From contig NZ_CP087164.1 in NCBI RefSeq assembly GCF_021172045.1, forward strand, positions 1,426,001 through 1,490,000: DNA of 64,000 nucleotides. Reading direction: 5' to 3'. Under the pieces are notes generated by a model, which had not been told where the DNA came from, ran no database searches, and was given only the letters and a program-made list of their open reading frames with translations. This DNA is from Capillimicrobium parvum (GTDB taxonomy: Bacteria; Actinomycetota; Thermoleophilia; Solirubrobacterales; Solirubrobacteraceae). Both the position numbers and the translations under genes were made by a program. This document shows, one piece after another, positions 15,192 to 18,815 of the stretch; the stretch's first letter is position 1, and each line of letters opens with the position of its first letter.

Positions 15192-15232
15192 GCCCCGCCC
15201 GGCACCGCCGTTCGGGGGGTGCCCGAGGCCTT

Positions 15233-15302: not shown

Positions 15303-16094
15303 GTGAAGATCTGCGTGCTGGTGAAGGAGGTGCCCGACGCGGCGGTGACCAAGCGCATCGACCCGTCCACGGGCCGCCTTGACCGCGGCGGCGAGAAGAA
15401 CCTCAACCCGTATGACACGCACGCCATCGAGGCGGCGATGCAGCTCAAGGAGGGCGGTGAGGTCCAAGTCGACGAGATCATCGCCGTGACGATGGGCCCC
15501 GGCTCGGCCGTGCGTGCGCTGCACAAGGCCGTGTCGCTGGGTGCCGACCGCTCCGTCCATCTCTCCGACGATGCGCTGGCCGGCTCCGACGTCGCCGCGA
15601 CGGGGTACGCCCTGGCCCAGACGCTCAAGCGCGAGAGCCCGGACCTCGTCCTGCTCGGCCAGCAGAGCGACGACGGCGAGTGCTACACGATCGGCGCCGT
15701 CGTGGCCGACCACCTGCAGATGCCGTCGCTGACCCAGGTCATCAAGATGGACGTCTCGGACGGCGGCCTGCGCTGCGAGCGCCAGGCCGAGTACGGCTAC
15801 GACACCGTCCAGGTCGAGCTGCCCGCCGTCATCTCGGTGGGCGACGCCATCAACGAGCCCCGGTACCCGTCGCTGAAGGCGATCATGGGCGCCAAGAAGA
15901 AGCCCCTCGACGCGCTCGGCACCGGCGACGTGGAGATCGACGCGTCACGCGTCGGCACCGACGGCTCGCAGGTCGAGTGCGGCAACTTCAAGGCCCCGCC
16001 GGCCAAGTCCGCCGGCCTCATCATCGAGGACGAGGACACGAACGAGACGGTCGAGAAGATCGTCGCCTGGCTCGACGAGAGGAAGCTGATCTGA
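15303..16094 (+). CDS. etfB: Electron transfer flavoprotein beta subunit
   Basis: A 263-residue EtfB/FixA protein that, with EtfA, accepts electrons from acyl-CoA dehydrogenases. The start MKICVLVKEVPD, the AMP-binding GQQSDDGECY region and the late recognition segment INEPRYPSLKAIMGAKKKP (partner-docking loop) are typical. GTG 15303 has GAGGAGG about 7 nt upstream. It is the first gene of the etfB-etfA-etfQO operon, driven by the promoter with the inverted repeat at 15233-15265. Confidence 0.93.
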   Translation: MKICVLVKEVPDAAVTKRIDPSTGRLDRGGEKNLNPYDTHAIEAAMQLKEGGEVQVDEIIAVTMGPGSAVRALHKAVSLGADRSVHLSDDALAGSDVAATGYALAQTLKRESPDLVLLGQQSDDGECYTIGAVVADHLQMPSLTQVIKMDVSDGGLRCERQAEYGYDTVQVELPAVISVGDAINEPRYPSLKAIMGAKKKPLDALGTGDVEIDASRVGTDGSQVECGNFKAPPAKSAGLIIEDEDTNETVEKIVAWLDERKLI

Positions 16095-16095
16095 C

Positions 16096-17073
16096 ATGGC
16101 GGGAATTCTCGTCTACGCCCTCCACTACGAGGGCGCGTTCAACAAGAACTCGCTCGGCGCGGTCGCGGAGGCGGCGCGCCTGGCGTCCGAGCTGGGCACC
16201 GAGGCCCACGCGATCGTCGTGGGCGAGGGCGTCTCCGACGACCTCGCCGGCCAGCTCGGCGGCTACGGCGCCGCGAAGGTCTTCAAGGTCGAGGGGCCCG
16301 AGGGCCTGTCGCAGCCGGTCGTCGATGCGATGGCCAAGGTCATGACCGACAACGGCCACGACTACGCGCTGTTCGGCGGCGGCCTGCTCGGCTTCGAGAT
16401 CGGCGCCGGCCTGGCCGCGCGCATCGGCGCGGGCGTGACGATGGAGGTCACGAGCGTCAGCGTGGACGGCGGCAAGCTCGTCGCCGAGCGCCCGATCCTC
16501 GGCGACTCGTCGATCTCCGAGTCCCGCTACAAGGGCAAGGGCATCATCATCGGGCGCCTGAACGCGTTCGAGGTCCCGGCCTCCAACGGCGGCACGGCCG
16601 CGGTGGAGACCGTCGACGTGGAGTTCTCGCCCTGGTCGACGAAGGCCAAGATGGTCCAGCGCGGCGAGCAGCGCGGTGCCGACGTCGACATCGAGGGCGC
16701 CGACGTCCTGATCGCCGGCGGCCGCGGGCTCGGCAAGCCCGAGGGCTTCGACCAGCTCCAGGACCTGGCGGGCGCCTTCGGCGGTAACTCCGCCGTCGCC
16801 GCCACCCGCGCGGTCGTCGACGCCGGTTGGTACCCGTACGCGGCGCAGATCGGCCAGACGGGCAAGACCGTCGCGCCGAAGCTGTACCTCGCGGCGGGCA
16901 TCTCGGGTGCCATCCAGCACAAGGTCGGCATGCAGTCCTCGGAGAACATCGTGGCGATCAACAAGGACTCGAACGCCCCGATCTTCGAGTTCTCCGATCT
17001 CGGCATCGTCGGCGACCTGAACAAGATCGTGCCGAAGCTGATCGAGGCCGTGAAGGCCAAGAAGGGGAGCTGA
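16096..17073 (+). CDS. etfA: Electron transfer flavoprotein alpha subunit
   Basis: A 325-residue EtfA/FixB. The N-terminal domain pairs with EtfB; the C-terminal FAD domain carries GGRGLGKPEGF, the VAATRAVVDAGW segment, QIGQTGKTV and LYLAAGISGAIQH, the usual FAD-binding track. It begins 1 bp after the etfB stop, so the subunits are translated together. It shuttles electrons to the ETF-quinone oxidoreductase encoded next. Confidence 0.94.
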   Translation: MAGILVYALHYEGAFNKNSLGAVAEAARLASELGTEAHAIVVGEGVSDDLAGQLGGYGAAKVFKVEGPEGLSQPVVDAMAKVMTDNGHDYALFGGGLLGFEIGAGLAARIGAGVTMEVTSVSVDGGKLVAERPILGDSSISESRYKGKGIIIGRLNAFEVPASNGGTAAVETVDVEFSPWSTKAKMVQRGEQRGADVDIEGADVLIAGGRGLGKPEGFDQLQDLAGAFGGNSAVAATRAVVDAGWYPYAAQIGQTGKTVAPKLYLAAGISGAIQHKVGMQSSENIVAINKDSNAPIFEFSDLGIVGDLNKIVPKLIEAVKAKKGS

Positions 17074-17078
17074 TCGCC

Positions 17079-18815
17079 GTGGCCGGCCACAACGGTGTCG
17101 CCGTCCCGGCGGCCTATCCGCCTCCCGTCGATTCGCCGAACGAGTTCATCAAGCGCGAGCTCGATGCCGAGGACGAGCGGATCGAGGTCGGCGTCGCCAT
17201 CATCGGCGGCGGCACCGCGGGCCTGGCCACCGCCAACCGCCTGCTGCAGCTGCTCGCCGACGACGAGGAGACGCTCGAGCGCCTCGGCGAGGTGCCCGTC
17301 GCGGTCATCGAGAAGGCCAAGACGTGCGGCGGGCACAACCTGTCCGGGGCGGTCGTCCGCCCCGGGCCGCTGCAGGAGCTCTACCCCGAGTACTCGCGCC
17401 AGCAGTGGCGCGAGGAGGGGTGGGCCTTCGGCGAGGTGACCAAGGAGGCGGTCTACATGACGCCGACCTCCAAGCACGCGATCCGGATCCCGCCCCCGCC
17501 GCCGTTCAAGAACCACGGCAACGAGGTCGTCTCGGTGTCGGCCCTGGCGCGCTTCCAGCAGCGCCTGGCCGAGGAGGGCGGCGCGTACGTGCTGACGGAG
17601 ACCGCCGCCACGCAGCTGCTCGTCACCGACGGCGCCGTGCGCGGCGTGCGCACCGGCGACAAGGGCCGCGGCAAGGACGGCCAGCCGCTGGGCAACTTCG
17701 AGCCGGGCACGGACGTCACGGCTCAGCACACCGTGCTGGCCGAGGGCTGCTGGGGCTCGCTCACCGGCGCCGCGATCCGCGAGTTCGGGCTGTCGGAGGG
17801 CCGCGAGCCGGCCGTCTGGGAGCTCGGCGTCAAGGAGGTCTGGAAGGTCCCCAAGCCGCTGGATCGCCTCATTCACACGATCGGGCCGTGGCCCGTGAAG
17901 ATCCGCTCGAAGTACGGGCAGATCGGCGGCACCTGGATCTACCCGATGAAGGACGCCAGGACGGGCGACGACCTCGTCTCGATCGGGTTCGTCATCGACC
18001 TCGAGTACGCCGACGCGACCACGTCGGCCCATGACCTGCTGCAGCAGTTCAAGCTGCACCCCCTCGTGCGCAAGATCCTCGAGGGCGGCGAGCGCATCGC
18101 CTGGGGCGCGAAGGCGCTGCCGGGCGGCGGCTACTGGTCGATGCCCAAGCTCACCATGCCGGGCGCGCTGCTCGTCGGCGACTCGGGCGGGATGGTCGAC
18201 ACGGTGGCGCTCAAGGGCGTCCACCACTGCATCAAGTCGGGCATGCTCGCGGGCGAGGCGATCTACGCCGCGCTCAAGCGGGGCTCGACCGACCTGTCGT
18301 CCTACGAGGAAGCGGTCGAGGAGTCCTCGATCGGCACCGAGCTCTACCAGGTGCGCAACACGCGCCAGCCGTTCCAGAAGGGGTTCCTGCGCGGTGGGCC
18401 GATCGTCAACCTGGCGATCGCGACGAAGGGCAAGCTGCCCGGCGGGCGCCTGGACTGGCATCGCAACGACGCGAAGCCGATGTTCATCGGCGACACGGCG
18501 AAGGGCTATCCGAAGCCGGACGGCAAGTACACGTTCGACAAGCTCTCCAGCGTGTTCATCACGGGCAACGCGACCCGCGACGATGCGCCGAACCACATCC
18601 GCGTGCAGAAGAACGTCCCCCGCGTGATCGCGGAGACGTGGAAGTGGATGTGCCCGGCGGGGGTCTACGAGATCCCCGATGACGCACCGGAGGACGGCAA
18701 CGTCGACGTGGTCGTCAACTACACGAACTGCGTGCAGTGCGGGGCGATCACCGCCAAGGGCGGCCGCCTGACCCCGCCCGAGGGCGGCGACGGGCCGCTC
18801 TACCAGGTGACCTGA
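17079..18815 (+). CDS. ETF-quinone oxidoreductase (FixC/ETF-QO family), unusual cluster motif
   Basis: A 578-residue flavoprotein that should pass electrons from EtfAB to the membrane quinone pool. It has a dinucleotide fold [17 protein letters not shown] (about residues 37-53), the [13 protein letters not shown] block and [11 protein letters not shown] region typical of ETF-QO. The C-terminal 4Fe-4S domain keeps CPAGVYE (Cys525) and TNCVQC (Cys551, Cys554) but the fourth ligand of the normal CxxCxxC pattern is Ile557, with no other Cys nearby. GTG 17079 has GGGGAG upstream. It closes the etf operon before a strong terminator. Confidence 0.9.

What the first reader, a model, noticed from the sequence alone, without database searches (positions are those of the whole stretch)
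18651..18752. ETF-quinone oxidoreductase lacks one Fe-S cluster cysteine
ETF-QO binds a 4Fe-4S cluster through a CPAG cysteine and a CxxCxxC motif. Here Cys525, Cys551 and Cys554 remain but the fourth position is Ile557, and no other Cys exists in the C-terminal 70 residues. The protein may hold a 3Fe-4S or differently ligated cluster, or pass electrons straight from FAD.
Basis: partly seen in the sequence, partly recalled or inferred. Interest (0 to 1): 0.6.

Follow-up and report, generated by a model that had tools for sequence, protein, structure and literature searches.

The report
ETF-quinone oxidoreductase with three-cysteine iron-sulfur site
A textbook respiratory enzyme that feeds electrons from fat breakdown into the respiratory chain has, throughout one large group of soil bacteria (Thermoleophilia), permanently swapped one of the four cysteines that hold its iron-sulfur cluster for isoleucine and rebuilt the surrounding loop, so it most likely carries a different kind of cluster from the mitochondrial enzyme.

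Summary
The gene at 17079-18815 (+), directly after etfB-etfA, encodes an ETF-quinone oxidoreductase whose cluster motif reads C525-P-A ... C551-V-Q-C554-G-A-I557 instead of CPA ... CxxCxxC. In 139 distinct Thermoleophilia orthologues (down to about 51% identity to the window protein) the isoleucine is invariant (139/139), C551 and C554 are 139/139, C525 is 138/139, and no other cysteine is conserved. The 13 canonical sequences compared and the pig enzyme keep Cys. The variant forms one clade with full support in a tree built without the cluster region. The loop is rebuilt as a whole: 8 of 23 clade-specific invariant substitutions fall in 12 residues (553-564). The Fe-S domain is more conserved inside the clade than the FAD domain, so this is not decay. 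Most likely the site holds a native [3Fe-4S] cluster, tuned for menaquinone (menD in this genome; MK-7(H4) reported for relatives). The main rival is a [4Fe-4S] cluster with a non-cysteine or solvent ligand. Direct FAD-only transfer is unlikely. Two EtfA-EtfD-type loci suggest parallel ETF-to-quinone routes. Cluster type needs EPR or Moessbauer.

The parts
17079..18815 (+). ETF-QO-type gene (578 aa, GTG start), single chain with FAD/quinone part and C-terminal Fe-S domain
   Evidence: Pfam ETFQO_UQ-bd 75.2 bits (cut-off 27.7), Fer4_ETF_QO 51.4 bits (cut-off 24); pig ETF-QO 2gmh E 1.4e-83; model top hit 2gmh TM 0.78
18651..18653 (+). Cys525 of CPA(G): cluster ligand 1
   Evidence: conserved 138/139 in Thermoleophilia, 7/7 outgroup
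18729..18731 (+). Cys551: cluster ligand 2
   Evidence: 139/139 and 7/7
18738..18740 (+). Cys554: cluster ligand 3
   Evidence: 139/139 and 7/7
18747..18749 (+). Ile557 (ATC) at the position of the fourth ligand, Cys in canonical ETF-QO
   Evidence: 139/139 Ile; Cys in all 13 canonical sequences and pig
18735..18770 (+). Rebuilt cluster loop, residues 553-564 ([12 protein letters not shown])
   Evidence: 8 clade-specific invariant residues here (Q553 G555 A556 I557 A559 G561 G562 L564); 4-residue gap against pig
18522..18812 (+). Fe-S domain Fer4_ETF_QO (residues about 482-578)
   Evidence: PF05187 match residues 482-576
16096..17073 (+). etfA, electron transfer flavoprotein alpha, immediately upstream
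   Evidence: directly upstream of the orthologue in 60 of 60 testable loci
15303..16094 (+). etfB, electron transfer flavoprotein beta (start inferred; ORF opens at 15219)
   Evidence: ORF (VKICVLVKEVPD...); function named from sequence

Best explanation
It is a clade-specific, functional variant of ETF-quinone oxidoreductase in which the Fe-S site has three Cys ligands and, most likely, a native [3Fe-4S] cluster. EtfBA, encoded just upstream, passes electrons one at a time to this cluster; they go on to the FAD and then to menaquinone. Shown here: family and fold, three conserved Cys, the invariant non-coordinating Ile, the rebuilt loop, a single origin and the coupling to etfBA. Inferred: that a cluster is bound, that it is [3Fe-4S], that it is the entry point for electrons, and that the change tunes the potential to menaquinone.
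For: Ile in 139/139 orthologues, with the other ligands at 138-139/139 and no other conserved Cys (C83 90, C224 71, C384 39 of 139). Fe-S domain more conserved in the clade (80%) than the FAD part (68%) while equally far from canonical enzymes (37-39%), and 8 of 23 clade-specific invariants in 12 residues: selection on a changed cluster site. Synonymous codon changes at Ile557. One origin, SH-aLRT 100. etfA upstream in 60/60 loci. Actinobacterial ferredoxins with a non-Cys residue at one cluster position: all those examined were isolated as [3Fe-4S] (PMC6237146). Native [3Fe-4S] next to a quinone site exists in complex II (PMC8097209). menD present; MK-7(H4) reported in the group (PMC3035278).
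Against: No spectroscopy. In known [3Fe-4S] ferredoxins it is the second Cys of CxxCxxC that is lost, here the third. A conserved O/N ligand (T565 139/139, K/R560, T558 133/139, Q553) could complete a [4Fe-4S] site. The potential-tuning step is not tested.
Confidence: 0.55

Rival explanations
1. Site-differentiated [4Fe-4S]: three Cys plus a non-Cys ligand (side chain such as T565, T558, Q553 or K560, or water) on the fourth iron. It works as in canonical ETF-QO with a shifted potential and perhaps a labile iron.
For: T565 is invariant in the clade and Val/Leu/Thr in outgroups. Asp/Glu ligation in NfnSL (PMC9503767) and 3 Cys + water in RirA and aconitase (PMC11138216) are precedents.
Against: The residue at the ligand position itself is a non-coordinating aliphatic, not Asp/His/Ser; ferredoxins with replaced Cys in actinobacteria were isolated as [3Fe-4S] even with His or Asn.
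Confidence: 0.32
2. The cluster is lost or only structural, and electrons pass from ETF straight to the FAD.
For: One ligand is missing; one metagenome-assembled sequence (L032) even lacks Cys525.
Against: Three Cys invariant in about 139 proteins and the Fe-S domain is the best conserved part. In the canonical enzyme the cluster is the acceptor from ETF (title of Swanson et al. 2008, cited in PMC10869518).
Confidence: 0.08
3. Three Cys bind another centre (e.g. [2Fe-2S], linear [3Fe-4S], or a cluster completed by a partner protein).
For: Actinobacterial EtfD, the unrelated enzyme with the same job, has a linear [3Fe-4S] cluster (PMC13083937).
Against: The linear cluster there has four Cys; nothing in this sequence points to one, and the site descends from a cubane site.
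Confidence: 0.04
4. Sequencing or assembly error, or recent decay in this genome.
For: None found.
Against: Invariant Ile across the class with synonymous codon variation.
Confidence: 0.01

Closest known systems
Mitochondrial/proteobacterial ETF-QO (ETFDH; pig 2GMH)
   Same: Single chain, FAD and quinone domains, CPAG-VY and CxxC, C-terminal PEGGxGPxY; same fold (TM 0.78); sequence E 1.4e-83
   Different: Fourth Cys is Ile; KTCDIKDP replaced by GAITAKGG; four residues missing; Thr before the fourth Cys is Ala; menaquinone rather than ubiquinone host
FixC/FixX (EtfCX, 7koe)
   Same: Homologous flavoprotein part
   Different: FixC and FixX are two proteins; here one chain; FixC NCBIfam model far below cut-off (51 against 610 bits)
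EtfD (mycobacterial ETF:menaquinone oxidoreductase, 9ojn)
   Same: Same job, links ETF to menaquinone; has an unusual [3Fe-4S] cluster (PMC13083937)
   Different: Not homologous; membrane protein with CCG domains; two EtfD-like loci exist separately in this genome
Actinobacterial [3Fe-4S] ferredoxins with variable cluster residue (PMC6237146)
   Same: Three Cys plus a non-Cys residue at the fourth ligand position
   Different: Small ferredoxins; the second, not the third, Cys of CxxCxxC is replaced; no Ile listed

Membership tests
ETF-QO (ETFDH) family | Quinone-binding and Fe-S domains of the family in one chain | tested here: met
   PF21162 75.2 bits and PF05187 51.4 bits, both over cut-off
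ETF-QO (ETFDH) family | ETF-QO fold | tested here: met
   AlphaFold model pLDDT 78.9; best PDB match 2gmh, TM 0.78, E 8.6e-47
ETF-QO (ETFDH) family | Four Cys ligands for [4Fe-4S] | tested here: not met
   Three of four; Ile557 in place of the last. Therefore filed as a variant, not as a canonical member
ETF-QO (ETFDH) family | Genetic link to ETF | tested here: met
   etfA immediately upstream in 60/60 testable loci
ETF-QO (ETFDH) family | ETF:quinone reductase activity, membrane association | not testable with these tools
   needs purified protein
[3Fe-4S] proteins | Three Cys ligands and a non-ligand at the fourth position | tested here: met
[3Fe-4S] proteins | EPR signal near g 2.01-2.03, 3 Fe per site | not testable with these tools
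   spectroscopy needed
FixC/FixX | Separate FixC and FixX chains; FixC model over cut-off | tested here: not met
   one chain; 51.2 against 610 bits
EtfD | CCG domains and membrane helices | tested here: not met
   CCG domain absent from the four Pfam matches of the window protein

The most novel reading that the evidence does not exclude
A whole bacterial class has converted the [4Fe-4S] entry cluster of ETF-QO into a native [3Fe-4S] cluster with a rebuilt loop as an adaptation to menaquinone, a redesign of a textbook respiratory enzyme not described in the literature searched.
Probability: 0.4. Interest if true: 0.65.

Novelty: new variant of a known kind. Interest (0 to 1): 0.5.

Why it matters
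ETF-QO is described with a Cys4 [4Fe-4S] cluster. A natural, clade-wide Cys3 form gives a ready-made test of what the cluster's fourth ligand and potential do in ETF-to-quinone electron transfer, and of how such enzymes adapt from ubiquinone (high potential) to menaquinone (low potential). It also warns that Fe-S content should not be copied by annotation transfer.

Tried and rejected
Sequencing error: rejected. Alternative conserved Cys elsewhere: none. Degenerating domain: rejected. FixC/FixX or EtfD identity: rejected. Viral contigs: no relative of the protein; seven hits to the [11 protein letters not shown] pattern are chance. In 396 genomes of the phylum, PF05187 outside the class hit only weak, mostly FixX-like matches. 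Active-site geometry: no coordinates were given for the model. The pig structure paper and the two 2008 ETF-QO papers are not held.

Full report
WHAT IS THERE. The open frame 17079-18815 (+, GTG start, 578 aa) follows etfA (16096-17073) by 5 bases, and etfB precedes etfA. It scores over the cut-off for the ETF-QO quinone-binding (PF21162) and Fe-S (PF05187) families, matches pig ETF-QO 2gmh over residues 27-575 (E 1.4e-83), and its AlphaFold2 model (pLDDT 78.9) has 2gmh as best structural match (TM 0.78). It is the only PF05187 match in the 5.95-Mb single-contig genome.

IT IS A FIXED TRAIT OF A CLASS. Orthologues were taken from 299 genomes of the same class, a scan of GTDB contigs and 60 fetched stretches. 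In 139 distinct proteins, reaching down to about 51% identity to the window protein, Ile557 is 139/139, Cys551 and Cys554 139/139, Cys525 138/139 (the exception is one metagenome contig, L032). No other Cys is conserved: C83, C224 and C384 are Cys in 90, 71 and 39 of 139, and one column that is Thr51 in the window is Cys in 84. At DNA level 144 distinct copies encode Ile by ATC 131, ATT 11, ATA 2, so the residue and not the DNA is kept.

WHERE THE CHANGE HAPPENED. Canonical CxxCKTCD is present in pig, in six proteobacterial copies from plasmid records (L198-L203) and in seven genomes of one other family of the same class (f8: L109, L226-L231). In a tree built without the cluster region the 27 CxxCxxI rows form one group with SH-aLRT 100, separate from the f8 and proteobacterial canonical groups: one origin, no return to Cys seen. 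In 396 genomes of the phylum, PF05187 rang outside the class only weakly, mostly in short FixX-like frames. Other phyla could not be searched.

A REBUILT SITE, NOT A BROKEN ONE. Within the clade the Fe-S domain is the best kept part (80% mean identity to the window, against 68% for residues 30-480), while both parts are equally far from canonical enzymes (37% and 39%). Of 23 positions that are invariant in the clade and never that residue in 13 canonical sequences, eight (Q553, G555, A556, I557, A559, G561, G562, L564) lie within 12 residues, 553-564, around the lost ligand; a loop of four residues is also missing there. This is the signature of selection for a different site. The Thr before the fourth Cys in canonical enzymes is Ala here; from memory (not checked, paper not held) Thr-to-Ala at this place in the Rhodobacter enzyme lowers the cluster potential, which would fit a low-potential quinone.

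HOW IT LIKELY WORKS. Complex II carries a native [3Fe-4S] cluster beside the quinone site (PMC8097209), and the actinobacterial ferredoxins examined in which one of the four Cys is replaced were all isolated as [3Fe-4S] (PMC6237146). With an aliphatic Ile at the ligand position, three invariant Cys and no spare Cys, a native [3Fe-4S] cluster is the most economical reading; a [4Fe-4S] cluster with a side chain or water on the fourth iron is the main rival (precedents in PMC9503767, and PMC11138216). The canonical cluster has a potential of +47 mV (PMC13296446) and accepts the electron from ETF (title of Swanson et al. 2008, cited in PMC10869518). This genome carries menD and its relatives Conexibacter woesei and Solirubrobacter pauli make MK-7(H4) (PMC3035278), so tuning towards menaquinone is plausible but unproven.

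NOT THE ONLY ROUTE. Two other loci (G000:C1 about 591.5-595.5 kb and 2463-2468 kb) hold an EtfA-like gene (35-41% identical to the window's EtfA) next to an EtfD-like protein; the one scanned has Fer4 and CCG domains and matches 9ojn, an 'iron-sulfur-binding reductase' of 1042 residues, at E 6.8e-66, which I take to be the mycobacterial EtfD structure (same length as in PMC13083937). EtfD is unrelated to ETF-QO and has a linear [3Fe-4S] cluster (PMC13083937). The window's ETF-QO therefore probably serves its own EtfBA (60/60 loci) in parallel with EtfD.

VERDICT. Observation confirmed; interpretation partly supported. It is a new variant of a known enzyme, conserved across a class; the nature of its cluster is open and easy to test.

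Noticed in passing
L224 (G000:C1:591500-595500) and L222 (G000:C1:2463000-2468000): Two further loci with an EtfA-like gene next to an EtfD-like membrane Fe-S protein, so the genome has two unrelated kinds of ETF-to-quinone enzyme.
   Followed up: partly
L032:2999-4720: In this groundwater metagenome orthologue (90% identical) Cys525 is Gly, leaving two cluster Cys; a single case, perhaps an assembly error.
   Followed up: no
L109, L226-L231 (family f8 of the same class): One family of the class has the canonical four-Cys ETF-QO instead, about 36% identical (L109) to the window protein.
   Followed up: partly
L099:5001-7440: Orthologue in which the match spans 2440 bases and the frame stops early (CGAITAKVGA), suggesting an insertion or a frame error.
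   Followed up: no
L058, L061, L064, L085, L106: Metagenome assemblies titled Bifidobacterium breve carry Solirubrobacterales-type ETF-QO (76-80% identical); the titles look wrong.
   Followed up: no
L204:1201-2655: Sinorhizobium medicae plasmid gene called a 4Fe-4S dicluster protein is a transposase-like start fused to the C-terminal two thirds of a canonical ETF-QO.
   Followed up: no
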